From assembly GCF_014203325.1 (NCBI RefSeq), contig NZ_JACHIV010000001.1, positions 4,217,501-4,281,500 on the forward strand: 64,000 nt of DNA, in the 5' to 3' direction. The stretch is from Saccharopolyspora gloriosae. Lineage in GTDB: Bacteria > Actinomycetota > Actinomycetes > Mycobacteriales > Pseudonocardiaceae. The position numbers and the translations under genes are program-made. The notes below the pieces were generated by a model. That model saw only the letters and a program-made list of their open reading frames with translations. It was not told the origin of the DNA and did no database searches. Below are positions 1,531-58,275 of this stretch, in pieces (within the stretch, counting starts at the first letter, position 1; every line of letters starts with the position of its first letter).

Positions 1531-1725
1531 GGTGGTCGGGTGGCGGAACCTCAGCTGTCTTCTCGCTGCGGGATCTTTTTCCCAAGTGGCTCCGCCACGA
1601 GGGAAAAAGCCGTCCTCGCGAGAAGACACCTGAGAACCCGCCGGTGGTCGGCTTCTCGACGTGGGCTATTCGCTTCGCGAATCAGGCACGGCCTTCGGCC
1701 GCGAGGATTCGGCTTCGCCGGTGAC
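1531..1725 (+). repeat. Palindromic intergenic repeat, copy A (type 1)
   Basis: A long near-perfect hairpin at 1550-1634. Outer arms of 17 nt (1550-1566 and 1618-1634) pair with one mismatch. An inner stem CTTTTTCCC/GGGAAAAAG (1575-1583, 1601-1609) encloses an apical GTGGC-tcc-GCCAC stem. The left flank (GGTCGGGTGGCGGAAC-like) and a right tail with ATTCGC/GCGAAT and CGGCC-TTC-GGCCG mini-hairpins are shared with copies D and F. It sits between the 3' end of the ABC-F gene and the ssuD leader promoter. Runs of T/A on both strands of the inner stem would suit bidirectional termination. Confidence 0.85.
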
Positions 1726-1777
1726 GTGGACGTGCTCACCTGGAGCGACGGGTTCGCGGGCGCTGATCGGAGGTCGG

Positions 1778-3415
1778 TCAGGACTCGGTCACTCGGCCGT
1801 CGTCGATGTGCAGGCGGCGGGTGACGTGCACGGCGTCGAGCATGCGGCGGTCGTGGGTGACCAGGAGCAGGGTGCCCTCGTAGGAGTCGAGCGCCGACTC
1901 CAGCTGCTCGATCGCGGGCAGGTCCAAGTGGTTCGTCGGCTCGTCCAGCACCAGCAGGTTCACGCCGCGCGCCTGCAACAGCGCCAGCGCGGCCCGCGTT
2001 CGCTCGCCGGGCGAGAGCGTGTCCGCCGGGCGCAGCACGTGCGCGGCGAGCAGGCCGAACTTCGCCAGCAGCGTGCGCACCTCCGCCGTCGGCCACTCCG
2101 GGACCTGGGCGCCGAACGCGTCCAGCAGCGCCTCCGCCCCGAAGAACAAGCCGCGCGCCTGATCGACCTCACCGACCACGACCCCGGACCCGAGCGACCC
2201 GCGCCCGCCGTCGAGCTCCAGCCTGCCCAGCAGGGCCGCCAGCAACGTCGACTTGCCCGCACCGTTCGCCCCGGTGATCGCCACCCGATCCGCCCAGTCG
2301 ATCTGCAGGTCCACCGGCCCCAGCGTCATCGAATCCCGGTGCACCACGGCACCGTGCAACGTCGCCACCACCGAACCCGAGCGGGGCGCGGCGGCGATGC
2401 TCATCCGCAGCTCCCACTCCTTGCGCGGCTCCTCCACCACGTCGAGGCGCTCGATCAGCCGCTCCGTCTGGCGGGCCTTCGACGCCTGCTTCTCGGTGGC
2501 CTCGCTGCGGAACTTGCGGCCCACCTTGTCGTTGTCGGCGGCCTTGCGGCGGGCGTTCTTCACGCCCTTCTCCATCCACGACCGCTGCGAACGCGCCCGC
2601 GCCTCCAGCGACGCGCGCGTGTCCGCGTACTCCTCGTACTCCTCGCGCGCGTGCCTGCGCGCCACCTCGCGCTCCTCCAGGTACGCGGCATAACCACCGC
2701 CGAACGACCGCACCTGCTGCTGCGCGAGGTCCAGCTCCACGACGCGCGTCACCGTGCGGGCCAGGAACTCGCGGTCGTGGCTGACCAGCACCGTTCCGGC
2801 GCGCAGCTCGGAGACGAACCGCTCCAACCGCTCCAAGCCGTCGAGGTCCAGGTCGTTGGTGGGTTCGTCGAGCAGGAACACGTCGTAGCGGCTCAGCAGC
2901 AGCGACGCCATGCCCGCCCGCGCCGCCTGCCCACCGGACAAGCTCGTCATCGGCTGGTCGAGCGCGACCTCCAAGCCCAGTTCCGCGACGACGCTCGCCG
3001 AACGCTCCTCCAGATCAGCGCCGCCCAGCGCGAGCCACCGCTCCAACGCCGTGCCGTACTCGTCGTCCGCACCGGGACGTTCCTCGGTGAGCGCCTCCGT
3101 CGCCGCGTCCAACTCCCGCTGCGCCGCCGCGACCCCGGTGCGCCGCTCCAAGAACCCGTGCACCGTCTCGCCGGGAATCCGATCCGGCTCCTGCGGCAGA
3201 TGTCCCACCGTCGCCGTCGGCGGGCTCAACCGCACCGACCCCGCCTCGGCGGACAGCAAGCCGCCGAGCATCCGCAGCAACGTCGACTTCCCCGCGCCGT
3301 TCACCCCGACCAGCCCCACCACGTCACCAGGCGCGACGACCAGATCAAGACCGGAGAACAGGACCCGCTCGCCATGACCCGCGGCGAGCTCCTTCACGAC
3401 GAGTGTGGCGCTCAT
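1778..3415 (-). CDS. ABC-F family ATPase (two ATP-binding domains, no membrane domain)
   Basis: A 545-residue soluble protein with two ABC ATPase cassettes in tandem. The first has a Walker A GVNGAGKS (37-44), LSGGQ signature (159-163) and LLDEPTNDLD (181-190). The second has GANGAGKST (382-390), an LSPGE signature variant (467-471) and DEPTNHLD (491-498). The linker at about 250-330 is highly charged and helical, as in ABC-F ribosome-binding proteins. Such proteins act on translating ribosomes, either as translation factors (EttA/Uup type) or as antibiotic target-protection factors; the subfamily cannot be settled here. It starts at ATG 3415 with a short untranslated region and a possible TAGGAT -10, but no clear ribosome site. 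No antibiotic biosynthesis genes are adjacent. Confidence 0.9.
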   Translation of the reverse strand: MSATLVVKELAAGHGERVLFSGLDLVVAPGDVVGLVGVNGAGKSTLLRMLGGLLSAEAGSVRLSPPTATVGHLPQEPDRIPGETVHGFLERRTGVAAAQRELDAATEALTEERPGADDEYGTALERWLALGGADLEERSASVVAELGLEVALDQPMTSLSGGQAARAGMASLLLSRYDVFLLDEPTNDLDLDGLERLERFVSELRAGTVLVSHDREFLARTVTRVVELDLAQQQVRSFGGGYAAYLEEREVARRHAREEYEEYADTRASLEARARSQRSWMEKGVKNARRKAADNDKVGRKFRSEATEKQASKARQTERLIERLDVVEEPRKEWELRMSIAAAPRSGSVVATLHGAVVHRDSMTLGPVDLQIDWADRVAITGANGAGKSTLLAALLGRLELDGGRGSLGSGVVVGEVDQARGLFFGAEALLDAFGAQVPEWPTAEVRTLLAKFGLLAAHVLRPADTLSPGERTRAALALLQARGVNLLVLDEPTNHLDLPAIEQLESALDSYEGTLLLVTHDRRMLDAVHVTRRLHIDDGRVTES

Positions 3416-11205: not shown

Positions 11206-13074
11206 TCACAGGTGGTGGCGGCGCTCCCGCGCCCGGCGCTCGTACTCGGCCCGCGCGGAACGGGTGCTCTCCAGCGTCGACACCTCGGCGACCGGCACGT
11301 CCCACCACGCCTCCGGCGGGAGCTGCGCCTTGTCCGGCGAGGTCTCCACGTACACCGCGGTCGGGCGGTCCGCCGCCCTCGACGCGCGCAACGCCTCGCG
11401 CAACTCGTCCACGGTGTCCGCGCGCACCACGTCCACGCCGAGGCTGCGCGCGTTCGCCGCCAGGTCCAGCGGCAGCGGTTCCCCGGTGAACCGGCCGTGC
11501 TCGTCGCGGAACCGGTAGGCGGTGCCGAAGCGCTCGGCACCGACCTCCTCCGACAGTCCGCCGATGGACGCGTAACCGTGGTTCTGGACCAGCACCAGGT
11601 TGATCTTGATGCCTTCCTGCACGGCGGTCACCAGCTCGGTGGGCGACATCAAGTACGTGCCGTCACCGACGAGCGCGAACACCTCGCGATCCGGGTCGGC
11701 CAGCCGCGCGCCGATCGCCGCCGGTATCTCGTAGCCCATGCACGAGTACCCGTACTCCACGTGGTACTGGCTCGGCTGCTTGACCCGCCACAGCTTGTGG
11801 AGGTCCCCCGGCAGCGAGCCCGCCGCGTTGATCACGACGTCCTCGTCCGCGAGGACCTCGTCGAGCACGCCGATCACCTCGGCCTGACCGGGACGTTCCG
11901 CTCCGTCGGCGCACCGGGTGGCCCGGTCGACGACGTCGGCCCACCGCACCGCGGCGGCGCGGTATTCGCGCACGTAGGCCGGATCGACGTGGTGGTCGGC
12001 CAACCGCTCGGCGAGACCGCTGAGCACCGCCCGCGCGTCCCCGATCACCGGCGTCGCGGCCTGCTTGTGGGCGTCCCGGGCCTCGACGTTCACGTTGACG
12101 AACCGCACCTGCGGGTTCGCGAACAAGGTGTGCGAGGCCGTCGTGAAGTCGGTGTAGCGGGTGCCGACGCCGATCACCAGGTCCGCCTGCCGCGCAGTGT
12201 CGTCGGAGGACGCGGTGCCGGTGTGCCCGATCGCGCCGAGTGCGCGCGGATCGTCGAAGCGCAGCGAGCCGCGCCCCGCCTGCGTCTCCGACACCGGGAT
12301 GCCGGTCACCGCCGCGAACGCGCCCAACGCCTGTTCCGCGCCGCTGTGGTGCACACCGCCACCCGCGATGATCAGCGGGCGGCGCGCCTCCCGGATCCGG
12401 TCGGCCGCTTCGTCCAGCGACCGCGGATCGGCCTGCGGCCGGTGCACCCGCCAGGTCCGTTCGGCGAAGAACTCCTCGGGCCAGTCGTAGGCCTCGGCCT
12501 GCACGTCCTGCGGCAGCGCCAGCGTCACCGCCCCCGTCTGCACCGGATCGGCCAGCACCCGCATCGCCTCCAGGGCGGACGGGATCAGCGCTTCCGGCCG
12601 CCAGATCCGGTCGAAGTACCGGGACACCGGGCGCAGCGCGTCGTTCACCGACACGTCCCGCGCGTGCGGCGGTTCCAGCTGCTGCAGCACCGGGTCCGCC
12701 GGGCGCGTCGCGAACACGTCCCCCGGCAGCAGCAGGACCGGCAGCCGGTTGATCGTGGCCAGCGCCGCGCCGGTGACGAGGTTGGTGGCACCGGGGCCGA
12801 TCGACGTGGTGCACGCGTAGGTCGAGAGCCTGCCGCGCTGGCGCGCGTACCCGACCGCCGCGTGGACCATCGCCTGCTCGTTGCGCCCTTGGAGGTACGG
12901 CATTTCCGGCGTCTCCAGCAGCGCCTGCCCGATCCCCGCCACGTTGCCGTGCCCGAAGATCCCCCAGCACCCGGCGATCAACCGCACGCGTTCGCCGTCT
13001 CGCTCGGCGTGCTGCCGCGCCAGGAACCGCACCAACGCCTGAGCCACCGTCAACCGCCGCGTCCCGGGATTCAT
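11206..13074 (-). CDS. iolD: 3D-(3,5/4)-trihydroxycyclohexane-1,2-dione acylhydrolase IolD
   Basis: Thiamine-diphosphate enzyme (622 residues) that opens the inositol ring in the third step of myo-inositol catabolism, giving 5-deoxyglucuronate. The three ThDP domains are evident. The N-terminal Pyr domain has YLQGRNEQ with the conserved Glu, a central domain carries IAGGGVHHSGA, and the C-terminal PP domain has the GDGTYLMSP motif followed by the partner residues at NHGYASIGG. ATG 13074 follows GGAGAGGGGCAGTG. Unlike the other genes in its arm, it is separated from iolB by 267 bp containing palindromic repeat copy B, so its expression may be uncoupled or attenuated. Confidence 0.96.
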   Translation of the reverse strand: MNPGTRRLTVAQALVRFLARQHAERDGERVRLIAGCWGIFGHGNVAGIGQALLETPEMPYLQGRNEQAMVHAAVGYARQRGRLSTYACTTSIGPGATNLVTGAALATINRLPVLLLPGDVFATRPADPVLQQLEPPHARDVSVNDALRPVSRYFDRIWRPEALIPSALEAMRVLADPVQTGAVTLALPQDVQAEAYDWPEEFFAERTWRVHRPQADPRSLDEAADRIREARRPLIIAGGGVHHSGAEQALGAFAAVTGIPVSETQAGRGSLRFDDPRALGAIGHTGTASSDDTARQADLVIGVGTRYTDFTTASHTLFANPQVRFVNVNVEARDAHKQAATPVIGDARAVLSGLAERLADHHVDPAYVREYRAAAVRWADVVDRATRCADGAERPGQAEVIGVLDEVLADEDVVINAAGSLPGDLHKLWRVKQPSQYHVEYGYSCMGYEIPAAIGARLADPDREVFALVGDGTYLMSPTELVTAVQEGIKINLVLVQNHGYASIGGLSEEVGAERFGTAYRFRDEHGRFTGEPLPLDLAANARSLGVDVVRADTVDELREALRASRAADRPTAVYVETSPDKAQLPPEAWWDVPVAEVSTLESTRSARAEYERRARERRHHL

Positions 13075-13160
13075 CACTGCCCCTCTCCCATCCAGCACCT
13101 AGAGCCGGTCCCGGAGCTTGGTCGTGCCGAGTGATCAGCCGTCTCGGCATTTCGTCTTGT

Positions 13161-13320
13161 CAGCGGCGAAGCCGCTGAGCAGCGACCACCAGAGCAACCG
13201 GCACCGCCGCGGGTTCTCAGCGTCCTTCTCGCGAGGACGGCTTTTTCCCTCGTGGCGGAGCCACTCGGGAAAAAGATCCCGCAGCGAGAAGGACGCTGAG
13301 GTTCCGCCACCCGACCACCC
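13161..13320 (-). repeat. Palindromic intergenic repeat, copy B (type 2), inside the iol operon
   Basis: Hairpin 13216-13300. The 17-nt outer arms (13216-13232, 13284-13300) are perfectly complementary with variable core CGTCCTT, and the inner stem CTTTTTCCC/GGGAAAAAG (13241-13249, 13267-13275) caps a GTGGC-gga-GCCAC tip. It is inverted relative to copy A: the shared flank is at 13301-13316, and the tail AGCGGC-gaa-GCCGCT is at 13161-13178. It occupies the iolB-iolD gap, the only copy between genes of one apparent pathway operon. Confidence 0.85.
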
Positions 13321-13341
13321 GACCAAACCGAAGACGGCCAA

Positions 13342-14223
13342 TCAGTAAAAGGGAAGTCGGGGGTCGAGGGGTTGGTTCCACCAGGTTTCGCGCACCCACG
13401 AGTGCGCCGGGTCGTCGCAGATCAGCCACGCCCGGTTCGGCGAGGGCCCGGCCATGACGTTGAGGTAGTACATGTCGTAGCCGGGCACCGCCATCGACGG
13501 CCCGTGCCAGCCGTCGGGGATCAGCACGACGTCTCCGCTGCGCACTTCCGCCAGCACGTCGGTGTCCCGGCCCGGCCCGGACGGGTACACCCGCTGGTAG
13601 CCGATGCCTTCGCCGCCGCTTCCGGCGTCGATCTCGAAGTAGTAGATCTCCTCCAGCCGGGATTCGCCGTCGCGTTCGGTGTCGTGCTTGTGCGGCGGGA
13701 ACGACGACCAGTTCCCCGCCGGGGTCAGCACTTCCACCGCGATCAGCCGGTCGGCTTCGAACACGTGCGCCGCGCCGAAGTTGTTCACCTGCCTGCTGGC
13801 CTGTCCCGCACCGCGCAGCTCGACCGGCACCTCGGACGCCGCGCCGTAGCGCGCGGGAAGGCGGCGAGCGCACTTGGCGCCCGTCAGCGCGAACCGGCCA
13901 CCGGCCGCGCTGCGGATCCGCACCCGCGCGTCCCTGGGCGCGTAGGCGAAATCGGTGACACCGCGGAACACGCTTTCGCGCCCGGCGAGCTCGAACACCA
14001 CGACCTCGCCGTCACCGTCCTCGCACCGGACGGTGCACCCGCCGGCGAGCGGGAGCACGATCCATTCGCCGTCGCCGGTGCGGAACTCGTGCTCCGCTCC
14101 GGCTGCGAGCTTCAGCACGCGCAACGACGAGAACTCCCACCCGGCGGTGTCCGGGTCGACGTGCACCGCGTGCTCGCCGCGTGCCGCGGCCCCCGCGGGC
14201 AGGTGGAAACGCTTGTCCGCCAC
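13342..14223 (-). CDS. iolB: 5-deoxy-glucuronate isomerase IolB
   Basis: Cupin-type isomerase of 293 residues converting 5-deoxyglucuronate to 2-deoxy-5-keto-gluconate. Metal-ligand motifs of the second cupin are clear: SSFPPHKHDT with the paired histidines, followed by LEEIYYFEI and later GWHGPSMAVPGYDMYYLNVMAG. The C-terminal WLICDDPAHSWVRETW stretch is also family-typical. Two consecutive GTG codons (14224-14226 and 14221-14223) could start it; the second has AGGAGG at better spacing. The frame stays open upstream to 14433, but that part overlaps the next gene. It lies 55 bp after the aldolase gene. Confidence 0.95.
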   Translation of the reverse strand: MADKRFHLPAGAAARGEHAVHVDPDTAGWEFSSLRVLKLAAGAEHEFRTGDGEWIVLPLAGGCTVRCEDGDGEVVVFELAGRESVFRGVTDFAYAPRDARVRIRSAAGGRFALTGAKCARRLPARYGAASEVPVELRGAGQASRQVNNFGAAHVFEADRLIAVEVLTPAGNWSSFPPHKHDTERDGESRLEEIYYFEIDAGSGGEGIGYQRVYPSGPGRDTDVLAEVRSGDVVLIPDGWHGPSMAVPGYDMYYLNVMAGPSPNRAWLICDDPAHSWVRETWWNQPLDPRLPFY

Positions 14224-14278
14224 CACTTCCTCCTCCGTCCTTGTTGTCCGGGAGCTCCGGATCGCGGTCGTCCGGCGG

Positions 14279-15160
14279 TCACAGCAGTCCGGCAGCGGTG
14301 TCCACCGCCGCGGCCACGTCCCCGTCGGGTGGGTAGAGCAGGCTCCGGCCGACGACGAGGCCTTGCACGTTCGGCAGCCGCAACGCCGTCCGCCAGCGGT
14401 CGAACGTCGCGTCCTGATCGGCGGACACCTCACCGCCCAACAGCACCGTCGGCAGCGTCGTGGTGGCCATGACCTGCCCGATCCGTTCGATGTCGTCGAC
14501 CACCGGCACCTTCAGCCAGGTGTAGGCCGAGGTGCCGCCCAGCCCGGCGGCGATCGAGAGGGACCGGGTCACGGCCGCCGCGGACAGGTCGTTGCGCACC
14601 TCGCCGTCGACGCGGCGGGACAGGAACGGCTCGACCATCGCCATCAGGCCGCGTTCGGCGAGATCGTTGACGGCCCGCGCGGCGCCGCACATCGTCTCCA
14701 GCGAGCCCGGATCGGCGTAGTCGAGGCGCAGCAGCAGCTTCCCGCCGTCGAACCGCAGCCGTTCGATGTCCTGCGCCCGGTGCCCGGTGAACCGGTCGTC
14801 CAGCTCGAAGGCCGAGCCCGCCAACCCGCCCCGGTTCATCGAACCGATCACGACCTTGTCCTCCAGCGCCCCGAGCAGCAGCAGGTCCTCCAGCACGTCG
14901 GACGTGCCGAGCACGCCGTCCACTCCGGGCCGCCGCAGCGCCGTGCACAACCGCCCGAGCAGGTCCGCGCGATTCGCCATCGCCAGCGCGTCACCCCCGG
15001 CGCCCAGCGCGCCGCGCGCGGGGTGGTCCGCCGCGATGATCAGCAGTCTGCCGCTCGCCCCGAGCAGCGGCCTGCGCCGCCGGGCCGCGGCCGCTTCCCG
15101 GATCGCCTCCGGGCGGGTGGCGCGGACCCGCGTGAGATCAGCAATGTCCACAGTGGACAT
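14279..15160 (-). CDS. (Beta/alpha)8-barrel aldolase of inositol clusters (Cgl0159-like)
   Basis: A TIM-barrel protein of 293 residues resembling the Cgl0159 family, routinely encoded in actinobacterial inositol operons. Barrel-type motifs include LLIIAADHPARG near residues 40-50, a MNRGGLAGSAFELDDRF segment, LLLRLDYAD, and VLLGGEVSADQD with a late GLVVGRSLLYP. The ADHPARG strand resembles class I fructose-bisphosphate/deoxyribose-phosphate aldolases. It may therefore split 2-deoxy-5-keto-gluconate 6-phosphate into DHAP and malonate semialdehyde (the IolJ step). That role is inferred from position. It starts at ATG 15160, 25 bp after iolC. Confidence 0.8.
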   Translation of the reverse strand: MSTVDIADLTRVRATRPEAIREAAAARRRRPLLGASGRLLIIAADHPARGALGAGGDALAMANRADLLGRLCTALRRPGVDGVLGTSDVLEDLLLLGALEDKVVIGSMNRGGLAGSAFELDDRFTGHRAQDIERLRFDGGKLLLRLDYADPGSLETMCGAARAVNDLAERGLMAMVEPFLSRRVDGEVRNDLSAAAVTRSLSIAAGLGGTSAYTWLKVPVVDDIERIGQVMATTTLPTVLLGGEVSADQDATFDRWRTALRLPNVQGLVVGRSLLYPPDGDVAAAVDTAAGLL

Positions 15161-15185
15161 GATTTCCCCCCTTCACCCTGGCCGC

Positions 15186-16148
15186 TCAACCCGAGACGCC
15201 GGGGCGGTCGACGGCGAGCAGGGACTCGATCTCGTGCGCGTAGGGCATCGCCGCCGAACAGGCGAGCCGCGACGCCACCAGCGCCCCTGACGCGTTGGCG
15301 AACCGCATCGTGCGCGCCGGCCCCCACTCCGCGAGCAGCCCGTGACACAACGCGCCGCCGAACGCGTCGCCGGCGCCGAGCCCGTTGACGACCTCGACCG
15401 GAACCGGCGGCGCCACCACCTCGGCGGCGGCGGTGCGCGCGAGCACTCCCGCCGGCCCCTGCTTGACCACCGCCAGCTCCACGCCGGCCGCCAGCAGCGC
15501 GTCCGCCGCGGCGTCCGGATCGCGGGTGCCGACTGCTCGTTCGCACTCGTCGAGGTTGCCGACCGCCACGGTCGCGAACCGCAGCGCCCGCCGGTACCAG
15601 GAGGTCGCCTCGTCGTGATCGGCCCAGAACATCGGGCGCCAGTCCAGGTCGAACACGGTGTGCCCGCGCCGGGCCCGATGTTCCAGCGCGGCCAGCGTCG
15701 CCGACCGGCTCGGCTCTTCCGCGAGCCCGGTTCCGGTGATCCAGAAGATCCGCGCCCGGGCGATGGCGTCCAGGTCGAGCTCCCCGGAGCGGATCTCCAG
15801 ATCCGGCGCCTTGGGATATCTGTAGAAGTACAGCGGGAAGTCGTCGGGCGGGAACAGCTCGCAGAAGGTCACCGGCGTCGGATAGCGCTCGACGGGCGTG
15901 ACCCAGCGGTCGTCCACGCCGAACTCGCGCAACGCCCGGTGCACGTACTCGCCGAACGGATCGGCGCCGGTCCGGCTGATCACCGCGGTCGCCCGGCCGA
16001 GCCGGGAGGCCGCGACCGCGACGTTCGTGGCCGACCCGCCGAGGTACTTGCCGAACGTCTCCACCTGCGACAGCGGCACGCCAGTCTGCAGCGGGTACAC
16101 GTCGACCCCGATGCGGCCCATGGTGATGACGTCGAACGCGATGCCCAT
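15186..16148 (-). CDS. iolC: 5-dehydro-2-deoxygluconokinase IolC
   Basis: PfkB-family sugar kinase, 320 residues, phosphorylating 2-deoxy-5-keto-gluconate. The N-terminal MGRIGVDVYPLQTGVPL and the substrate-site GGSATNVAVAASRLG are characteristic of IolC. The C-terminal PfkB signature NGLGAGDAFGGALCHG contains the catalytic Asp. ATG 16148 is preceded by GGAGGTCAGAACTG. It is first in the leftward operon (iolC, aldolase, iolB, then iolD past a repeat). The promoter and operator lie about 210 bp upstream. Confidence 0.95.
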   Translation of the reverse strand: MGIAFDVITMGRIGVDVYPLQTGVPLSQVETFGKYLGGSATNVAVAASRLGRATAVISRTGADPFGEYVHRALREFGVDDRWVTPVERYPTPVTFCELFPPDDFPLYFYRYPKAPDLEIRSGELDLDAIARARIFWITGTGLAEEPSRSATLAALEHRARRGHTVFDLDWRPMFWADHDEATSWYRRALRFATVAVGNLDECERAVGTRDPDAAADALLAAGVELAVVKQGPAGVLARTAAAEVVAPPVPVEVVNGLGAGDAFGGALCHGLLAEWGPARTMRFANASGALVASRLACSAAMPYAHEIESLLAVDRPGVSG

Positions 16149-16355
16149 CAGTTCTGACCTCCGAACGGGACTAGGAGCGGAATCGGCGCGGAGCCGGGGA
16201 ATTCCTGGAAGTCGCCGCACGGCCCGGCGACGGCCGGAATTCCGGAGGCGAAGGGGTTCTCGGGCACCGGCGAGTCCGCCGGTGGGGCGATCGAGGGGTC
16301 GAGCCGCGGCGATCCGGATCGTCACCGGGCACCGGGGCCACGCGTTGTGATTTCG

Positions 16356-16406
16356 TGTCTACTCGGCCGAAATGCCGCCTGTCAATAGCATGTCCGGACA
16401 TACTTA
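16356..16406 (-). promoter_or_regulatory. iolC promoter with upstream operator
   Basis: On the minus strand the element TAAGTATGTCCGGAC (16392-16406) is followed after exactly 6 bases by a -35 TTGACA (16380-16385), an 18-bp spacer and a -10 TAGACA (16356-16361). The operator core ATGTCCGGACAT (16390-16401) is a perfect palindrome. The same 15-mer (one difference) plus the 6-base gap plus TTGACA occurs before iolE on the other strand (17406-17432). The GntR regulator encoded next door is the likely ligand. Confidence 0.7.
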
Positions 16407-16443
16407 CCTATGGGTGACACCCGACCTTGCTACCGTAAGGAAC

Positions 16444-17235
16444 GTGACCTCCATGCAGCAGCGATCCCGACGCGAGGCCGGGAAGTCCACCTGGAACCCG
16501 GCCAGCCGGGTCACCGTGGACCACGCCAGCCCCGTCCCGCTGTACCACCAGGTGGCCAGCCAGATCGAGGCCGCGATCGAATCCGGCGACCTCCCGGTCG
16601 GCACCCGGCTGGACAACGAGATCGAGCTGGCGGGCCACCTCGGGCTGTCCCGGCCGACGGTCCGCCAGGCCATCGGCTCGCTGGTCGACAAGGGCCTGGT
16701 CGTGCGCAAGCGCGGCGCGGGCACCCAGGTCGTGTTCAACAAGGTGAAGCGCTCCGTCGAGCTGAGCAGCCTGTTCGACGACCTCACCGAGATCGACCGG
16801 AAACCCAGCACCTACGTGCTGGTCAACGAAGTCGAACTGGTGCCGGACGCGCTCACCGGCACCCTCGGCCTCACCCGGACCGACAGCGTGCTGCACCTGG
16901 AGCGGGTCCGCTACGCCGCCGGGGAGCCGATAGCGCGGATGAACAACTTCCTGCCCGCGGAGCTGATCCACCCCTCGACCGACTCGCTGATCGAGCGCGG
17001 GCTCTACCAGCTGCTGCGCGGCGCGGGCGTGCCGCTGCACGCCGCGCGCCAGACGATCGGCGCCCGCGTGGCGACCAAGCAGGACGCCGAGCTGCTCGAC
17101 GAACCCGAGGGCGCCGCGCTGCTGACGATGGAACGCACCACCTACGACCAGTCCGGGCGGATCGTCGAGTACGGCTCGCACGTGTACCGCGCCTCCCGCT
17201 ACTCCTTCGACCTCTCCCTCCGCGGCGACATCTGA
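16444..17235 (+). CDS. GntR/HutC-family regulator of the iol cluster
   Basis: A 263-residue regulator with an N-terminal winged helix-turn-helix (PLYHQVASQIEAAI...GLSRPTVRQAIGSLVDKGLV) and a C-terminal UTRA effector domain (ending VYRASRYSFDLSL). It is the presumed inositol-responsive regulator, since it sits between the divergent iol arms beside the shared operators. The start is probably GTG 16444, which follows a TACCGT -10-like hexamer by seven bases and may be leaderless; ATG 16453 is the alternative. The operator palindrome at 16390-16401 lies about 45 bases upstream, so autoregulation is likely. Confidence 0.85.
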   Translation: MTSMQQRSRREAGKSTWNPASRVTVDHASPVPLYHQVASQIEAAIESGDLPVGTRLDNEIELAGHLGLSRPTVRQAIGSLVDKGLVVRKRGAGTQVVFNKVKRSVELSSLFDDLTEIDRKPSTYVLVNEVELVPDALTGTLGLTRTDSVLHLERVRYAAGEPIARMNNFLPAELIHPSTDSLIERGLYQLLRGAGVPLHAARQTIGARVATKQDAELLDEPEGAALLTMERTTYDQSGRIVEYGSHVYRASRYSFDLSLRGDI

Positions 17236-17632
17236 GCGCGACCCGCCGCCACGCCGCACCGCTGCCGATCACGCACGCCGCTCGACCCGCGCCTTCCTCG
17301 CCACCCCGGCCGAGTGACGCGGGCCCGCATCCGCGCACGGACTCCGAATCACCCGGACCTGCGCGGATTCACCGTCACGGCGACTTTCCGCGAATCATCC
17401 GTACGTAAGTATGTCAGGACCAAGTCTTGACAGGGCCGGGCCAGCCGGGGAAAACTACGGACACGGAGATCGGCGTCACAGTCGGCGCTCACGCGCACCT
17501 CGACCAGCACCTCTTCGCTCCGCGATTCCGCCCGCGCGAAATTCTCCGGGCCACGAACGGACATCCGCACCGGCTCCTCCGGTGCCGCAGATTCGGACTT
17601 CCGCCGCGACGCGGCAGCACAAGGAGATTTCG
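17236..17632 (+). promoter_or_regulatory. iolE promoter region with second IolR-type operator
   Basis: This 397-bp gap has no convincing gene. Operator TAAGTATGTCAGGAC lies at 17406-17420, then six bases, then -35 TTGACA at 17427-17432. A -10 is less clear (AAAACT or TACGGA near 17451-17459). The operator-to-(-35) layout is the same as at the iolC promoter. About 175-180 nt of untranslated leader would remain before iolE, ending in AAGGAG at 17621-17626. Confidence 0.6.
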
Positions 17633-18550
17633 ATGAGCAACGGCAATGCGGCCGAGGGCCGGCTGCGGGTCGGTTCGGCGCCGGACTCCTGGGGCGTCTG
17701 GTTCCCCCAGGACGAGCGGCAACCACCCTGGGAGCGCTTCCTGGACGAAGTGGCCGAGGCCGGGTACCGGTGGGTCGAACTCGGCCCGTACGGCTACCTG
17801 CCCACCGATCCGCGGCGGCTGCGGGACGAACTCGCCCGGCGGGAGCTGACCCTGTCGGCGGGCACCTGCTTCACCGCGTTCCACCGCGGCGACGTCTGGG
17901 ACGAGATGTGGGCGCACGTCCGCGAAGTCGCCGGGCTCACCGCGGCGCTCGGAGCCGGGCACCTCGTGGTCATCCCCGAGATGTGGCGCGACCAGGCCAG
18001 CGGCGAACAGCTCGAGGACCGCGCGCTCGACGACGACGCGTGGCGCTCGCTGGGCGCCGGCATCGACCGGCTCGCCAGAGCGGTGCACGAAGAATTCGGG
18101 CTGGGACTGCGGTTCCACCCGCACGCCGACAGCCACGTCGACACCCAGCCGAACGTGGAGCGGTTCCTGGAGATGACCGATCCCGACCTGGTGAAGTTGT
18201 GCTTGGACACCGGGCACATCTCCTATTGCGGCGGGAACAACCTGGAGCTGATCGAGAAGTACCCGAGCCGCATCGGCTACCTGCACCTCAAGCAGGTGGA
18301 TCCGCGGGTGCTGGCCGGGGTGCGGGACGAGGACCTGCCGTTCGGCCCGGCGGTGCGGCGCGGCGTGATGTGTGAGCCGCCGAACGGGGTTCCGGAACTG
18401 GAACCGATCATCCAGGCCACCGGAGATCTCGACGCCGACCTGTTCGCCATCGTCGAGCAGGACCTCTACCCGTGCGACCCGGAGGTACCGCTGCCCATCG
18501 CGCGACGCACTCGGGACTTCCTGACCCGTTGCGGAGCGGGCACCGGCTGA
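17633..18550 (+). CDS. iolE: IolE-type inosose dehydratase / sugar phosphate isomerase-epimerase
   Basis: Xylose-isomerase-like TIM-barrel protein of 305 residues. Motifs include GSAPDSWGVWFPQDERQ at the N-terminus, a metal-site Glu in VVIPEMWRD, HPHADSHVDT, and LCLDTGHISYCGG with the conserved Asp/His, all as in IolE and related inosose dehydratases. It would dehydrate 2-keto-myo-inositol to the dione that IolD cleaves. The start ATG 17633 has AAGGAG six bases upstream. An inosose isomerase (IolI-like) role is possible, but the full metal site and cluster logic favour the dehydratase. Confidence 0.85.
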   Translation: MSNGNAAEGRLRVGSAPDSWGVWFPQDERQPPWERFLDEVAEAGYRWVELGPYGYLPTDPRRLRDELARRELTLSAGTCFTAFHRGDVWDEMWAHVREVAGLTAALGAGHLVVIPEMWRDQASGEQLEDRALDDDAWRSLGAGIDRLARAVHEEFGLGLRFHPHADSHVDTQPNVERFLEMTDPDLVKLCLDTGHISYCGGNNLELIEKYPSRIGYLHLKQVDPRVLAGVRDEDLPFGPAVRRGVMCEPPNGVPELEPIIQATGDLDADLFAIVEQDLYPCDPEVPLPIARRTRDFLTRCGAGTG

Positions 18551-18817
18551 GGGTTCCCGTCGGCCCGGGAATGGTTGCTGCGCCGCGAGATCCGGCACCG
18601 CGCTACCGATGATCACTGACCAATCCACTGTGGACCGACTGCTGATCGACCCCGCAACCGGCCCGCCAGGCGCTGTCGCCCGTCCTGCGTGGAGCAGGAT
18701 GACAGCATGACGCCCGACGGGCATTCACCCCGTCAGCGGCACTATCGACACCGGCCGAGTTCGGCCACGAGGAAGACGGCCGACGAATCCGGCCGCGCGG
18801 TGAGAACTGAGAGGCCG

Positions 18818-20221
18818 ATGGTGGCGAATACGCTCTCGAACGACGGGCCCGGCGGCCCGACCGATGCCGCCGCGGTGCGCAAGGCCAAGCGCTTCATCCT
18901 GCTGGTCGCGGTGATCTCCGCGCTGGGTGGTGCGCTGTTCGGCTACGACACCGGCGTGATCTCCGGTGCCTTGCTGTTCATGACGCCGCAGTTCGGGCTC
19001 ACCCCGTTCCTGGAAGGTCTGGTCACCAGCGCGCTGCTGATCGGCGCCGCCGCGGGTGCGCTGTTCGGCGGCCGGATCGCCGACCGCGCCGGGCGACGGC
19101 CGCTGCTGATCGGCACCGCGGTGGTGTTCGTGGTGGGCACGCTCGGGTCGGCGTTGACCCCGGACGTCCCGATCCTCGTGCTCTCCCGCGTGGTGCTGGG
19201 AATCGCGGTGGGCGCCGCATCGGTGGTGGTGCCGCTCTACATCTCGGAGATGGCGCCCGCACACGTGCGCGGCAGCCTCGTCACGTTCAACGGTCTGATG
19301 ATCGTCACCGGGCAGCTGGCGGCCTACATCGTGAACGCGCTGCTAGCGGAGGCGGGCGCGTGGCGCTGGATGCTCGGCCTCGCGACCATCCCGGCGGTGC
19401 TGCTGGGCGTGGGCATGGTGTTCTTGCCGGACAGCCCCCGCTGGTACGCGAGCAAGGACCGGTTCGACGAAGCCCGCGGCGTGCTGCACCGGGGCCGCTC
19501 GCACGACGAGGCCGAACGGGAACTCGCGCAGATCACCACGGCCAACGAGCAGGAGTCCGCGGCCCGCGGCTGGCGGGAACTGCGGTCGCGGTGGCTGCGC
19601 AGGCTGTTCTTCATCGGCATCGGGCTGGCGGTGGTGCAGCAGATCACCGGCGTGAACACGATCATCTACTTCGCGCCGATGCTGTTGACGCAGACCGGCC
19701 TGGGCGAGGTCGCCTCCATCGTGGCGACCATCTCGATCGGCGTCATCTCGGTGCTGGCCGCGCTCGTCGGTCTGCTGCTGATGGACCGCGTGGGCAGGCG
19801 ACCACTGCTGATCACCGGGCAGGTCGGGGTGACCGGGTGCCTGGTGCTGCTGGGCCTCGCGTTCCTGCTGCCCGCCGGGGCGACCTGGGTCAGCTACCTG
19901 ACCCTCGGCCTGATGGTCGTCTACATGGCGTTCCAGCAGAGCAGCGTCAGCACCGTGACCTGGCTGATGATCACCGAGCTGTTCCCGCTGAAGATCCGCG
20001 GGTTCGCGATGGGCATCGCGGTGCTGGTGCTGTGGTTGACGAACTTCGTGGTGGCGCTGGTGTTCCCGCCGATGGTGGCGACGCTCGGCGGCAGCGCGAC
20101 CTTCTGGGTGTTCGCGGCGCTGGGCGTCGGGTCGCTGGTGTTCAGCGTGCGGCTCGTGCCGGAGACGAAGGGCCGCAGCCTGGAGGAACTGGAAGCGGAC
20201 ATGCGGCTGCGCTACGCGTAG
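18818..20221 (+). CDS. MFS sugar porter, probable myo-inositol importer
   Basis: A 12-helix major facilitator of the sugar-porter family, 467 residues. Diagnostic motifs are FGYDTGVISGA (41-51), a loop DRAGRRP, PDSPRWY in the central loop, DRVGRRPLL in the second half, and the C-terminal VPETKGRSLEELE. Position between iolE and iolG argues for proton-coupled inositol uptake (IolT-like). The chosen ATG 18818 follows GAGAGG; the frame stays open to 18689, but that stretch has poor coding character. It lies 267 bp after iolE and 26 bp before iolG. Confidence 0.9.
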   Translation: MVANTLSNDGPGGPTDAAAVRKAKRFILLVAVISALGGALFGYDTGVISGALLFMTPQFGLTPFLEGLVTSALLIGAAAGALFGGRIADRAGRRPLLIGTAVVFVVGTLGSALTPDVPILVLSRVVLGIAVGAASVVVPLYISEMAPAHVRGSLVTFNGLMIVTGQLAAYIVNALLAEAGAWRWMLGLATIPAVLLGVGMVFLPDSPRWYASKDRFDEARGVLHRGRSHDEAERELAQITTANEQESAARGWRELRSRWLRRLFFIGIGLAVVQQITGVNTIIYFAPMLLTQTGLGEVASIVATISIGVISVLAALVGLLLMDRVGRRPLLITGQVGVTGCLVLLGLAFLLPAGATWVSYLTLGLMVVYMAFQQSSVSTVTWLMITELFPLKIRGFAMGIAVLVLWLTNFVVALVFPPMVATLGGSATFWVFAALGVGSLVFSVRLVPETKGRSLEELEADMRLRYA

Positions 20222-20247
20222 CGCAGGACCCGGACGAAGGGACGACG

Positions 20248-21264: not shown

Positions 21265-21340
21265 GTCGCCGGACGATCGGCGCGGGGCTCCGGGCGCACG
21301 AGCGCTTTCACCGCGCCCTCCGGTGCTGTATGCAAGGCCC

Positions 21341-23079: not shown

Positions 23080-23235
23080 CAGCGGCGAAGCCGCTGATCA
23101 GCGACCACCAGACCAAACCGACCACCAGCGGGTTCTCAGCGGCTTCCTCGCGAGGACGGTGATTTCGCGGGTGGCGGAGCCACCCGAAAAATCGATCCCG
23201 CGGCGAGGGAGCCGCTGAGATTCCGCTACCCGCCC
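23080..23235 (-). repeat. Palindromic intergenic repeat, copy C (type 2)
   Basis: Outer arms 23135-23151 and 23203-23219 pair over 16 of 17 positions with variable core CGGCTTC. The inner stem has diverged to GATTTCG/CGAAAAATC but still closes a GGTGGC-gga-GCCACC tip. A tail AGCGGC-gaa-GCCGCT lies at about 23082-23097. It fills the gap between the convergent PhoD and SGNH-lipase genes. Confidence 0.75.
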
Positions 23236-27129: not shown

Positions 27130-27280
27130 GTGTCCGGGTAGCGGAACCTCAGTCGGTCTCTCGCTGCGGGATCTTTTTCCCAAGTGGCTCCGCCACGAGG
27201 GAAAAAGCTGTCCTCGCGAGAGACCGACTGAGAACCCGCCGGTGGTCGGCTTTGTGACGTGGGCTATTCGCTGCGCGAAT
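27130..27280 (+). repeat. Palindromic intergenic repeat, copy D (type 1)
   Basis: Perfectly complementary 17-nt outer arms (27148-27164, 27216-27232) with variable core TCGGTCT. Inner stem CTTTTTCCC/GGGAAAAAG at 27173-27181 and 27199-27207, and apical GTGGC-tcc-GCCAC. The tail includes ATTCGC-tgc-GCGAAT at 27266-27280. It lies downstream of the XRE regulator gene and upstream of the LacI gene, both leftward. Confidence 0.9.
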
Positions 27281-27430
27281 ACAGGCACGGCCTACGGCCG
27301 CAAAGCAGGCTGGCTTCGCCGCCCACTGCACGGCTTCGCCGCGGGGCACGGCCTTTGGCCGCGAAGCAGGCGGGGCTCTCGCCCGCCCGAGGCACGGCCT
27401 TCGGCCGCAGGGCCACGGCCTTCGGCCGTA
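27281..27430 (+). repeat. Mini-hairpin array attached to copy D
   Basis: A run of short stem-loops with stems CGGCC/GGCCG or CGGC/GCCG and three-base loops: TAC (27288-27300), TTC (27331-27341), TTT (27349-27361), TTC (27395-27407) and TTC (27416-27428). Most are introduced by GGCA or GCA. Loops vary while stems persist. The unit closely resembles a C-TTCG-G tetraloop hairpin. The remaining 27431-27519 shows no feature. Confidence 0.75.
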
Positions 27431-38224: not shown

Positions 38225-38360
38225 GCGAGCGGCCACCACCAGAGCAGACGAACCCCCCAGCGGGTTCTCAGCGTTCTTCTCGCCAGGACAGCAATCGTGT
38301 GTGGGGCCACCAAAATTGATCCCGCAGCGAGCAGAACGCTGAGGTTCCGGCACCCGACCA
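38225..38360 (-). repeat. Palindromic intergenic repeat, copy E (type 2, partly decayed)
   Basis: Outer arms 38267-38283 and 38327-38343 pair at 16 of 17 positions, with variable core CGTTCTT. The inner stem is lost or degenerate (GCAATC...AATTGAT), while a GTGG/CCAC tip remains. The flanks match copies B and C. It lies between the convergent AraC and hydrolase genes. Confidence 0.7.
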
Positions 38361-38385
38361 CCTCGGAGAACGACCGAGGAAATCG

Positions 38386-40444: not shown

Positions 40445-40600
40445 TGGGTGGTCGGGTGGCGGAACCTCAGGTGTCTTCTCGCTGCGGGATCTTTTTCCCA
40501 AGTGGCTCCGCCACGAGGGAAAAAGCCGTCCTCGCGAGAAGACACCTGAGAACCCGCCGGTGGTCGGCTTCTCGACGTGGGCTATTCGCTGCGCGAATAC
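40445..40600 (+). repeat. Palindromic intergenic repeat, copy F (type 1)
   Basis: Perfect 17-nt outer arms (40466-40482, 40534-40550) with variable core GTGTCTT. Inner stem CTTTTTCCC/GGGAAAAAG at 40491-40499 and 40517-40525; apical GTGGC-tcc-GCCAC. The tail has ATTCGC-tgc-GCGAAT. Nearly identical to copy A outside one arm base. Lies between convergent genes. Confidence 0.9.
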
Positions 40601-40700
40601 AGGCACGGCCTACGGCCGCCAGGCAGGCTTGCTCCGCAGCCCAAGGCACGGCTTCGCCGCAAAGGCACGGCTTCGCCGCGAGGCACGGGCTTCGGCCGTC
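40601..40700 (+). repeat. Mini-hairpin array attached to copy F
   Basis: Four short stem-loops: CGGCC-TAC-GGCCG (40606-40618), CGGC-TTC-GCCG (40649-40659 and 40668-40678) and an ACGG-type hairpin with TTC loop (40685-40699), several introduced by AGGCA. Same unit as in the array after copy D, but with a different number and order. The rest of the gap, to 40815, shows no feature beyond a few further TTCGCCG words. Confidence 0.7.
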
Positions 40701-52413: not shown

Positions 52414-52416
52414 CGC

Positions 52417-55814: not shown

Positions 55815-57914
55815 ATGCCGTCCGTTCCGTCGTTCCCCCGCCACAGCGCGCGCACCCAGGGCTTCACCCTCGGCGTGCCGCGGACCTTCACCATCACCCC
55901 CGATGGCAAGACAGTGCTGTTCCTGCGCTCCGCCAGCGGAACGGACCGCAGCAACGCCCTCTGGCGCTGGGACGTCACGACCGGCACCGAGGCGCTGGTC
56001 GCCGATCCGGCCACGCTGCTCATCGACGACGAGGTCTCCGACGAGGAGCAGGCCCGTCGCGAACGGTCCCGGGAACGCGCCACCGGCATCACCGGCTACG
56101 CCACCGACAGCACCGGGACCCAAGTGGCGTTCACCCTGTCCGGCAGGCTGTTCCACGCCGACCTGAGCACCGCGGCCGTCCGCGAACTGCCCGCTCAGCA
56201 GCCCGTCGCCGATCCGCGGCCGGACCCGCACGGCCGGTGGGTCGCCTACCTCTCCGGCGGGGCGCTGCGCCTGATCGGCACCGACGGCAGCGGTGACCGG
56301 GCCTTGGCCGAACCCGAGACCGACACCATCAGCTGGGGAGCCGCCGAGTTCATCGCGGCCGAGGAGATGGCCCGCTACCGCGGCTACTGGTGGTCCCCGG
56401 AAGGCACCGCGGTGCTCGCGGCCCGCGTGGACGAAGAACCCGTGCAGCACTGGTACCTCGCCGACCCGGCAGACCCCGCGAAACCACCCCGAACCCTGCG
56501 CTACCCCGCGGCGGGCACCGCAAACGCCGAGGTCCGCCTCGCCGTGCTCGGCGTGGACACCGCGCCCGTCGACGTCGAATGGGACCGCGAAGCCCACCCG
56601 TACCTGGTCACCGCGCACTGGTCCCGCGGCGGGCCACCGCTGATCGCGGTGCAGAGCCGGGACCAGCGAGTCCAGCTGGTGCTGGCGGTCGACCCCGCCA
56701 CCGGACGCACTCGCGAAGTGCACCGCGACACCGACGAGCACTGGATCGAGATCAAGCCCGGCTGGCCGGCCTGGCACCCCGGCGGCGAGCTCGTCCGCAT
56801 CGGCGTCGACGGCGACAGCTACCGCCTGTTCGTCGGCGACGTGCCGTGGACTCCGGAGTCGCTGCAAGTGCGGTCGATCATCGACATCGGCGACGACGTC
56901 CTGATCTCCGCCTCCGCCGAGGACCCCGCCGAGATCCACCTGTACCGCTGCACCGCCGACGGCGCCGAGCGCGTCAGCACCGAACCCGGCGTGCACAGCG
57001 CAGTCCGCACCGGGACGACCACCCTGCTCGCCCACGCCGGTCTGGAGTCCCAGCACTCCCGCTTCCGCGTGGCCGACGGCGAACGCACCCTCGGCGAGAT
57101 CCGCTCCCACCCGGAGACCCCGTCGATCACGCCCAACGTGGAGCTGCTGCGGCTCGGTGATCGCGAGCTCCGGACCGCGCTGCTGCTGCCGCAGGGCCAC
57201 ACCGCCGCCGACGGGCCGCTGCCGGTGCTGCTCGATCCCTACGGCGGGCCGCAGGCGCAGCGCGTGCTCGCCCGGCGGCAGGGTTATCTGACCTCCCAGT
57301 GGTTCGCCGACCAGGGTTACGCGGTGGTCGTCGTCGACGGCCGCGGCATGACCGGCCGCGGTCCCTCCTGGGATCGCGCGATCAGCGGCGACCTGGCGGA
57401 ACCGCCGCTGCAGGACCAGGTCGACGCGCTGCACGCGCTGGCCGAGCAGCGCCCCGAGATCGACCTGAATCGGGTCGCGATCCGCGGCTGGTCCTTCGGC
57501 GGCTACCTGGCCGCGCTCGCGGTGCTGCGCCGTCCCGACGTGTTCCACGCCGCCATCGCGGGCGCCCCCGTCACCGACTGGCGGCTCTACGACACCCACT
57601 ACACCGAGCGCTACCTCGGCGACCCCGCGCGGAACCCGCGCGACTACGCCGCGAGTTCGCTCGCCGACGACGCGGAGAACCTGCGCCGACCGCTGCTGCT
57701 GCTGCACGGCACCGTCGACGACAACGTCTTCCCCGCGCATTCGCTGCGCCTGTCGGCGGCGCTGCAGGCGGCGGCACGCCCGCACACCATGCTGTCGCTG
57801 CCCGGCGTGAGTCACATGCCCACCGACGAGACCACGTCGGAGAACCTGCTGCTGCTCCAGATCGAATTCCTGCGCGCGGCACTGGGCGGCTCCGACCGCA
57901 CCTCTTCGGCCTGA
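55815..57914 (+). CDS. S9 family serine peptidase (DPP IV/acylaminoacyl-peptidase-like)
   Basis: A 699-residue prolyl-oligopeptidase-family enzyme. An N-terminal seven-bladed propeller region (GFTLGVPRTFTITPDGKTVLFLRS..., ISWGAAEFIAAEEMARYRGYWWSPEG) includes the EE motif of DPP IV-like enzymes. The C-terminal catalytic domain has GWSFGGY with Ser560, Asp635 or Asp636 in TVDDNV and His667 in GVSHMP. No signal peptide is visible, so it may be cytoplasmic. It likely cleaves dipeptides from the N-terminus, often after proline. It starts at ATG 55815, convergent with the histidine kinase across the decayed repeat G. Confidence 0.92.
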   Translation: MPSVPSFPRHSARTQGFTLGVPRTFTITPDGKTVLFLRSASGTDRSNALWRWDVTTGTEALVADPATLLIDDEVSDEEQARRERSRERATGITGYATDSTGTQVAFTLSGRLFHADLSTAAVRELPAQQPVADPRPDPHGRWVAYLSGGALRLIGTDGSGDRALAEPETDTISWGAAEFIAAEEMARYRGYWWSPEGTAVLAARVDEEPVQHWYLADPADPAKPPRTLRYPAAGTANAEVRLAVLGVDTAPVDVEWDREAHPYLVTAHWSRGGPPLIAVQSRDQRVQLVLAVDPATGRTREVHRDTDEHWIEIKPGWPAWHPGGELVRIGVDGDSYRLFVGDVPWTPESLQVRSIIDIGDDVLISASAEDPAEIHLYRCTADGAERVSTEPGVHSAVRTGTTTLLAHAGLESQHSRFRVADGERTLGEIRSHPETPSITPNVELLRLGDRELRTALLLPQGHTAADGPLPVLLDPYGGPQAQRVLARRQGYLTSQWFADQGYAVVVVDGRGMTGRGPSWDRAISGDLAEPPLQDQVDALHALAEQRPEIDLNRVAIRGWSFGGYLAALAVLRRPDVFHAAIAGAPVTDWRLYDTHYTERYLGDPARNPRDYAASSLADDAENLRRPLLLLHGTVDDNVFPAHSLRLSAALQAAARPHTMLSLPGVSHMPTDETTSENLLLLQIEFLRAALGGSDRTSSA

Positions 57915-57989
57915 CCGGAACGACCACGCGGGGGCGGCCCGCCGAGCCGCCCCCGCCCGGAACCCGCACGATCCGACCGCACCGCGTCG

Positions 57990-58275
57990 TCGTTCTACCA
58001 GAGCGCGACGACCGGCGGGTTCTCGTGCGAGGAGGGTGTTTCTGCGCGCGGCGGACGATCCCGCGACGCGGCGAGCACGAGCCGCCTGCCTTTGATCTTG
58101 CCTTTTCAGGCGAACAGCGGGCCGTCTCCGTGTCTGCTCAGCGACGGGCCAGAGCAAGCCGACAGGGCTCTCCGCGGATTCCTCGCGAGGACAGCGATTT
58201 CGTGGTGCAGGGCTTGCCACCTGAGAAATCGCAGCCATACCAAGAAAAAGAGCAGTGAGGTTCCACCACAGCGGG
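57990..58275 (-). repeat. Decayed palindromic repeat region, copy G
   Basis: The 368-bp gap between convergent genes carries two degraded elements. G1 has arms CTCGTGC/GCACGAG near 58022-58081, and G2 has CTCTCCGCGGATTCCTCGC near 58168 with a shared GTGAGGTTCCACCA flank at 58255-58267. Inner stems have lost pairing. Assigned by flank similarity and position only. Confidence 0.55.

What the first reader, a model, noticed from the sequence alone, without database searches (positions are those of the whole stretch)
1531..58275. Dispersed palindromic repeat family whose outer stems covary from copy to copy
Six recognisable copies (A 1550-1634, B 13216-13300, C 23135-23219, D 27148-27232, E 38267-38343, F 40466-40550) plus a decayed pair near 58 kb. 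Every outer arm is 17 nt: constant CTCAG, a variable 7-mer, constant CTCGC. The variable parts are CTGTCTT, CGTCCTT, CGGCTTC, TCGGTCT, CGTTCTT and GTGTCTT. The opposite arm always carries the matching complement (17/17 in B, D and F; 16/17 in A, C and E). So pairing is conserved although sequence is not, which means either selection for a folded RNA/DNA structure or correction of arms by hairpin-templated repair. I do not recognise this family.
Basis: partly seen in the sequence, partly recalled or inferred. Interest (0 to 1): 0.88.

Follow-up and report, generated by a model that had tools for sequence, protein, structure and literature searches.

The report
Repeated gene-end hairpins with matched arms
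A soil bacterium carries about 300 copies of one long DNA hairpin placed just after the ends of genes, and the two strands of its stem keep matching each other even where their letters have been exchanged between related species, which points to a structure that the cell or the element needs.

Summary
The genome (a Saccharopolyspora, inferred from its closest relative) holds 324 CTCAG-N7-CTCGC arms and 298 full-hairpin matches; the reversed-pattern control is 0. The family occurs in 69 of 249 Pseudonocardiaceae genomes sampled (own included); of 296 genomes drawn across the phylum only the own one matched. The constant blocks stay constant when copies are found with a covariance model (74-77 of 77 places). 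Two stem segments, N7 and the inner stem, vary but stay paired. At one orthologous place (copy D) three species carry three different N7 pairs around nearly the same 51-nt interior. Copies lie between genes, enriched between convergent ones; 38 of 55 lie within 50 nt of the stop codon of the gene they face (8.7 expected). Copies come and go between species. No Y1/RAYT, TnpB or reverse-transcriptase match in this genome. Most likely a REP/BIME-like 3'-end element under selection for pairing, homogenised by exchange between copies, perhaps blocking antisense transcription. Function untested.

The parts
1543..1641 (-). copy A, long hairpin, N7 GTGTCTT / CTGTCTT (16/17)
1642..1744 (-). architecture II module of copy A: mini-hairpins with CGAAG-type loops, upstream of the hairpin in element sense
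   Evidence: (family D1)
13209..13307 (+). copy B, long hairpin, N7 CGTCCTT (17/17); absent at the orthologous place in G001, G002 and G005
13158..13186 (+). HP1 of copy B: TGTCAGCGGC-GAA-GCCGCTGAGCAGCGAC small hairpin (architecture I)
23128..23226 (+). copy C, between convergent genes, N7 CGGCTTC/CGGCTCC; present in G001, absent from G002
27141..27239 (-). copy D, N7 TCGGTCT (17/17); orthologous copies carry CGCCCTT/CGTCCTT in G001 and TGGCTTC in G002
27240..27342 (-). architecture II mini-hairpin module of copy D
38260..38350 (+). copy E, shortened inner part, between convergent genes, N7 CGTTCTT/CGTTCTG
40459..40557 (-). copy F, between convergent genes, N7 GTGTCTT (17/17); hairpin missing in G001 while its flanks remain
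40558..40660 (-). architecture II mini-hairpin module of copy F
58010..58275 (+). two decayed copies between convergent genes 55815-57914(+) and 58283-59368(-), with the left end motif TGCCTTTGATCTTG at 58087; limits by eye
   Evidence: intact orthologous copy in G002

Best explanation
A family of non-coding, non-autonomous repeats of Pseudonocardiaceae that works like REP/BIME elements: a long hairpin, with a smaller hairpin or a mini-hairpin array beside it, copied into the spaces behind gene ends. INFERRED: pairing is kept by selection on the folded strand; N7 and inner stems are free spacers between blocks that a protein (unknown) or the RNA fold needs; the letters of N7 at a place change mainly by ectopic gene conversion or replacement from other copies. 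INFERRED, weaker: the hairpin with its C-rich, G-poor unpaired flanks acts on RNA made in reader orientation (read-through from the convergent neighbour, or antisense noise) and stops or blocks it in the about 34-39 nt before it would enter the facing gene, that is, a 3'-end antisense barrier, possibly Rho-assisted.
For: Copy number and control. Covariation 0.366 against 0.117 shuffled, 97.7% of cells paired, 15 of 32 pairs with change on both sides. Constants kept in model-found copies. Entropy 1.20 bits in N7 against a mean of 0.085 in the rest; 11 copies with an identical 51-nt inner part carry 10 different N7. Strand preference outside G000 and G001. Position: 38 of 55 within 50 nt of the facing stop against 8.7 +/- 2.5 for random placement, maximum 19 in 5000; convergent 23 of 55 against a 9% share by length; divergent 4 of 55 against 30% (250 nt taken off each gap that holds an element); 0 copies overlap a called gene. 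Same spacing in the other loci: 66 of 83 face an antisense stop, 58 of these 66 within 51 nt. Presence/absence and arm differences at orthologous places. Leaders between hairpin and facing stop: C 0.40, G 0.23, T 0.06 (38 copies) against C 0.36, G 0.37, T 0.13 at 126 ends without the element, p = 1e-11; similar in 105 leaders of L103-L222. Gene ends in gaps with an element lack the strong local structure of other ends in the first 80 nt (-28.7 and -29.2 against -35.6 kcal/mol, p = 1e-4 and 0.004), as if the element takes the place of the usual terminator.
Against: No expression data at all. No mobiliser found. In G000 and G001 there is no strand preference in mismatches and only about 1 kcal/mol in folding. 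In 21 of 55 copies the gene upstream points away, so reader-strand RNA would need another promoter; a sigma-70-type scan of 13000-28000 found none. No T tract follows the hairpin; a T run inside the inner stem is in 48 of 59 distinct G000 copies but only 36 of 127 others. In tandem pairs of G000 the orientation preference alone is weak (17 of 28, p = 0.34). Of five G001 places without a full copy, three fold no better than shuffles, which does not suggest a terminator that was replaced. The 80-nt fold test cuts through the element. C-rich flanks and many G.T pairs are shared by descent, so p values and cell counts overstate independence.
Confidence: 0.45

Rival explanations
1. Purely selfish dispersed element: it spreads by an unidentified enzyme that targets gene ends or their terminators, with no benefit to the host; the fixed distance to stop codons reflects target choice, and pairing is needed only for its own movement (folded single strand).
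For: Full-hairpin matches vary from 18 to 298 within the genus; lineage-specific presence; anchored at one end only; folded strand is one specific strand outside G000/G001; shortened and decayed copies exist.
Against: No Y1/HUH (PF01797), TnpB (PF07282) or reverse transcriptase (PF00078) match in G000, G002 or G003 (other transposase and integrase families not tested); 22 frames between neighbouring copies look ordinary by eye; complementary outer ends above the cross-pair level in only 6 of 34 copies.
Confidence: 0.33
2. No selection for structure: arms match because hairpin-templated repair and gene conversion keep copying one arm into the other.
For: In G000 and G001 mismatches show no strand preference (9:8 and 7:6); a mini-hairpin of architecture II shows matched changes too; chimeric arms exist, so exchange between copies happens.
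Against: 59 G.T to 4 C.A in other assigned species and the strand difference in folding energy; constant blocks untouched while N7 changes; copies with 3 or more arm mismatches are rare (3 of 59 and 2 of 31).
Confidence: 0.12
3. A cis-acting or trans-acting structured RNA (riboregulator or antisense sRNA) made from each copy.
For: Reader-strand fold with near-invariant internal-loop letters; a second hairpin nearby.
Against: Copies in the window lie beside unrelated genes (KduI/IolB, hydrolases, ABC protein, histidine kinase and others; 9 of 10 scanned had a Pfam family); hundreds of copies; no conserved stretch upstream of HP1 that looked like a promoter (by eye); no Rfam match at gathering in the window, and the six weak matches at E<=5 in eight loci and one window stretch are not on the long hairpin.
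Confidence: 0.07

Closest known systems
REP / BIME / REPIN elements with TnpAREP (RAYT)
   Same: High-copy extragenic palindromes, gene-end location, hairpins, subfamilies that differ between species, composite architecture.
   Different: Hairpin of about 99 nt rather than 20-40 bp (the size in the abstract of PMC3733652, seen in listings); matched variable segments between constants; anchored to the stop codon of the antisense neighbour; no RAYT-type (PF01797) match in G000-G003; GTAG within 40 nt before the hairpin in only 16 of 55 copies in gene sense, CGTC in 8.
Bidirectional intrinsic or Rho-assisted transcription terminators between convergent genes
   Same: Place (3' ends, convergent gaps), strong hairpin, stem letters free.
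   Different: Near-invariant letters inside the stem and loop and a repeated family; no T tract after the hairpin.
MITEs
   Same: Short, non-coding, dispersed, gained and lost between species; some copies have complementary ends (TGTCTTTGATCTTG / CAAGATCAAAGACA).
   Different: Ends are the least conserved part and are complementary above cross-pairs in only 6 of 34 copies; no partner transposon found.
Integron attC sites (recalled, not compared by any tool)
   Same: Folded single strand, structure kept while stem letters vary.
   Different: Dispersed singly behind genes rather than in cassette arrays; no integrase search was made.

Membership tests
REP/REPIN with RAYT | high-copy extragenic palindrome | tested here: met
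   298 full-hairpin matches; 0 of 58 sampled copies overlap a called gene; 1 of 84 in other loci does
REP/REPIN with RAYT | cognate TnpAREP (Y1 transposase) in the genome | tested here: not met
   PF01797: 0 in G000-G003, the four genomes of the genus with most copies
REP/REPIN with RAYT | gene of the mobiliser flanked by the repeats | tested here: inconclusive
   22 frames between neighbouring copies in fetched stretches looked ordinary by eye; not scanned against a library
REP/REPIN with RAYT | short palindrome (20-40 bp) with GTAG/CGTC tag | tested here: not met
   about 99-nt hairpin; GTAG in 16 and CGTC in 8 of 55 leaders in gene sense; either of them in 22 of 55 in reader sense
MITE | conserved terminal inverted repeats shared with a transposon | tested here: not met
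   own ends complementary above the 95th percentile of cross-pairs in 6 of 34 architecture I and 0 of 28 architecture II copies; 48 TGTCTTTGATCTTG-like sites genome-wide, no transposon identified, their surroundings mostly not read
MITE | target-site duplication | tested here: inconclusive
   sequence around the empty places has diverged up to the stop codons
Intrinsic terminator | hairpin followed by T tract | tested here: not met
Rho-dependent terminator | C-rich, G-poor unstructured RNA | tested here: inconclusive
Rfam families (release 15) | covariance-model match | tested here: not met
   0 at gathering in the window; nothing on the long hairpin at E<=5 in eight loci and one window stretch
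OMEGA (TnpB) RNA | TnpB in the genome | tested here: not met
   PF07282: 0 in G000-G003
Retron / group II intron RNA | reverse transcriptase in the genome | tested here: not met
   PF00078: 0 in G000, G002-G005; 1 in G001

The most novel reading that the evidence does not exclude
The N7 pair behaves as a two-part cassette whose halves, about 60 nt apart, are replaced together at fixed places in the genome from a pool of types partly shared between species, while nearly everything around it is held constant; the element is a new class of gene-end device that halts antisense transcription before it enters the neighbouring gene, maintained in hundreds of copies by exchange between them and without any recognisable transposase.
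Probability: 0.22. Interest if true: 0.82.

Novelty: new variant of a known kind. Interest (0 to 1): 0.63.

Why it matters
Pseudonocardiaceae include important antibiotic producers, and how their convergent genes are kept apart is a question this family could open. Hundreds of natural variants of one hairpin at known distances from stop codons, with empty orthologous places and changed arms in sister species, are a ready-made set of experiments on what keeps palindromes paired (selection, repair or conversion) and on how repeats spread without a recognisable transposase.

Tried and rejected
RAYT/Y1 as driver: no match in the four high-copy genomes. TnpB and reverse transcriptase: no match in G000. 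A transposase gene enclosed by two copies: 22 ordinary-looking frames, by eye. MITE with terminal repeats: a subset only; a general outermost stem (P0) is not supported (p = 0.077). Known RNA family: none on the long hairpin. Independent sigma-70-type promoter: none in 13000-28000, the only stretch scanned. That the constant blocks are constant only because the search pattern demanded them: tested with the covariance model and rejected. That the strand preference is general: it is not seen in G000 or G001. That empty places carry a native terminator: of five G001 places folded, two fold better than shuffles and three do not, and one of the two turned out to hold a shortened copy. Literature: seven answered searches listed no paper whose title or start of abstract describes this family; besides the listings I saw one passage of PMC12306157, four passages of PMC3610266, an empty term search of PMC3733652 and the abstract and outline of PMC8266576. 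The library lacks most subscription papers.
Full report
WHAT IS THERE. The genome that holds the window is one contig of 6,825,909 bases; the pattern TCTCAG-N7-CTCGC occurs 152 times forward and 172 times reverse, and the same pattern read backwards 0 times. The full hairpin with both sets of constants matches 133 + 165 times (a few symmetric copies count on both strands). Same-genus genomes hold 96, 192, 91, 18 and 18 such matches; 10 of 60 genomes in that sample, own included, and 5 of 53 genera had any. G001 equals Saccharopolyspora sp. NFXS83 by the length of its first contig (514,941), so the window is inferred to come from a Saccharopolyspora.

DISTRIBUTION BY COVARIANCE MODEL. A model (R1) from 67 diverse copies finds the family in 69 of 249 genomes of the family (own included), 15 of 46 genera (at most 16 candidates per genome were scored, so counts saturate), and in 1 of 296 genomes drawn across the phylum, the window's own (strict filters in both). 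In 968 kb of the window's genome (stretches partly chosen because they hold copies, so density is not genome-wide) it gives 145 matches at 77 places.

ANATOMY. Two kinds of upstream neighbour occur in G000: a small hairpin TGTCAGCGGC-GAA-GCCGCTGAGCAGTGAC (architecture I; related small hairpins in other genera) or a run of mini-hairpins with CGAAG-type loops ending in ...TAGCCCACGTC (architecture II, seen in G000, G001 and G002). A further outermost complementary pair (TGTCTTTGATCTTG with CAAGATCAAAGACA, or TTCAGAATGATC with GGTCATTCTGAA) exists in a subset but is not general: own ends exceed the 95th percentile of cross-pairs in 6 of 34 architecture I copies and 0 of 28 of architecture II.

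PAIRING WITHOUT SEQUENCE. On 67 diverse copies 97.7% of pair cells are standard pairs; 15 of 32 pairs have changes on both sides in 295 cells; the covariation score is 0.366 against 0.117 +/- 0.006 for shuffles, none of 500 as high, and 0.06-0.11 when slid. Changes concentrate in N7 (seven pairs) and the inner stem (six pairs). The search pattern itself demanded the constant blocks, so I checked them in model-found copies: the ten left constant columns of CTCAG and CTCGC are kept in 74-77 of 77 places, the left N7 columns in 32-65 of 77. Among 41 G000 copies of one inner type, N7 columns have 1.20 bits of entropy, the rest 0.085 on average, though one loop column reaches 1.30, so N7 is about as diverse as the freest unpaired site. 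Eleven copies with an identical 51-nt inner part carry 10 different N7. Three of 59 distinct G000 copies and two of 31 G001 copies have 3 to 5 arm mismatches, with arms of two different types; they look like recombinants inside the hairpin that rarely persist.

WHICH STRAND. In G000 they are 9 and 8, in G001 7 and 6; in the other assigned species together 59 and 4; with 35 copies that I could not assign (some may be further G001 copies) 88 and 8 (186 distinct copies). An earlier tally with another filter, which dropped 20 of 210 matches, some of them real copies with unusual interiors, gave 94 and 15 outside G000 and 7 and 5 in it; the model-found G000 copies give 15 and 14. Many of the G.T pairs are at one N7 position and may be inherited, so cells are not independent events.

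WHERE. With a simple codon-model gene caller in the window and 20 stretches, 58 copies were found, none overlapping a gene, and 55 could be placed between two genes: convergent 23, tandem 28, divergent 4. Gaps of at least 120 nt number 30, 108 and 43; by gap length, with 250 nt taken off each gap that holds an element, one expects 9% convergent and 30% divergent (p = 9e-11 and 5e-5). In 40 of 55 the gene after the hairpin is on the other strand, and in 38 of these its stop codon lies 14-46 nt from the hairpin. Random placement and orientation in the same gaps gives 8.7 +/- 2.5, maximum 19 in 5000 trials. The other side of the element is not so anchored. In NFXS83 21 of 25 and in the other loci 66 of 83 placed copies face such a stop, 58 of the 66 within 51 nt; 1 of 84 was inside a called gene (the other loci include unassigned ones). 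In tandem pairs of G000 the orientation preference alone is not significant (17 of 28).

TURNOVER. The window is syntenic with G001, G002, G003 and G005. Copy B is absent from G001, G002 and G005; F lacks its hairpin in G001 though flanks remain; C is present in G001 and absent from G002. Of nine G000 copies in a second stretch alignable with G001, three have a full counterpart there and the others a decayed, shortened or no recognisable one; often the whole space between stop codons differs. Where both species have a copy the letters of N7 usually differ on both arms: copy D is TCGGTCT in G000, CGCCCTT/CGTCCTT in G001 and TGGCTTC/TGGCTTC in G002; its 51-nt interior is the same in G000 and G001 and differs at two sites in G002. 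Two further places changed from TGAGCCT to CGTTCCT and from TCGGTCT to CGGCTTC; a fourth also changed; copy C kept its type apart from an inserted base. At one more place a shortened G001 copy kept the N7 of the G000 copy (CGGCCTT). Incoming types CGTCCTT and CGGCTTC (G001) and TGGCTTC (G002) occur elsewhere in the same genomes; CGTTCCT was not seen elsewhere among the 31 G001 copies. Conversion or replacement by another copy explains most of this without new mechanisms. The mini-hairpin next to D changed in matched fashion too (ATTCGC/GCGAAT to ATGCGC/GCGCAT).

HOW IT MAY WORK. That is what an unstructured Rho-loading stretch looks like (established knowledge, recalled). RNA polymerase moving in reader orientation comes from the convergent neighbour or from antisense noise, makes the stable hairpin, and has about 34-39 nt before it would enter the facing gene backwards. 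I therefore propose an antisense barrier at gene 3' ends; this is inference. A passage that I saw in PMC3610266 reports antisense transcription enriched at 3' ends of genes in S. erythraea, which fits reader-strand RNA but was not linked to this family, and I did not test whether S. erythraea carries it. Gene ends in gaps with an element have weaker structure in their first 80 nt than other gene ends (-28.7 and -29.2 against -35.6 kcal/mol), as if the element replaced the usual terminator hairpin; the 80-nt window cuts through the element, and three of five G001 places without a full copy show no strong hairpin, so this is only suggestive. Against: in 21 of 55 copies no neighbouring gene feeds reader-strand transcription, and no T tract follows the hairpin.

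WHAT MOVES IT. Unknown. PF01797 (Y1, the RAYT family), PF07282 (TnpB) and PF00078 (reverse transcriptase) have no match in G000, G002 or G003. Frames between neighbouring copies look ordinary (by eye). DDE, IS110 and integrase families were not tested.

COMPARISON AND VERDICT. In location, copy number and hairpin form it works like REP/BIME elements, but it fails the RAYT and tag tests and has features not described for them in what I saw: matched variable segments between constants, and anchoring to the facing stop codon. I file it as a new variant of a known kind. Function remains to be shown.

Noticed in passing
27240-27342, 40558-40660, 1642-1744 and many G000 loci (among L001-L030): Arrays of mini-hairpins with CGAAG-type loops whose short stems also change in matched fashion (ATTCGC/GCGAAT, ATGTGC/GCACAT, AATCGC/GCGATT; ATGCGC/GCGCAT in G001) and whose number of units differs between species.
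   Followed up: partly
L004, L027, L157, L188; window 23128-23226: Copies whose inner part is inverted relative to the outer blocks (the four loci), or which read as a hairpin of the pattern on both strands (copy C): inversion between the arms seems to happen.
   Followed up: no
13221-13239, 13277-13289, 27155-27173: In the main G000 subfamily the palindrome CTCGCGAG, or TCTCGCTGCGGGA on the other strand, is followed by a T run, a possible alternative small terminator; found in only part of the copies of other species.
   Followed up: partly
G000:C1:24859-24970, 3429730-3429842, 5977672-5977819: Short inverted pairs of TGTCTTTGATCTTG spanning about 110-150 nt: apparently deletion derivatives of the element (only the first was read).
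   Followed up: partly
38146-38386 against G001:C16 (L084-L085): At copy E's place G001 carries about 2.3 kb between the flanks instead of 0.24 kb, ending in a truncated copy of the element; the extra DNA was not analysed.
   Followed up: no
G001:C1 near 377300-377400 (L232), opposite G000:C1:144176-144262: A G001 place first read as empty holds a shortened hairpin with the same N7 (CGGCCTT) as the full G000 copy: here N7 was kept while the interior was lost.
   Followed up: partly
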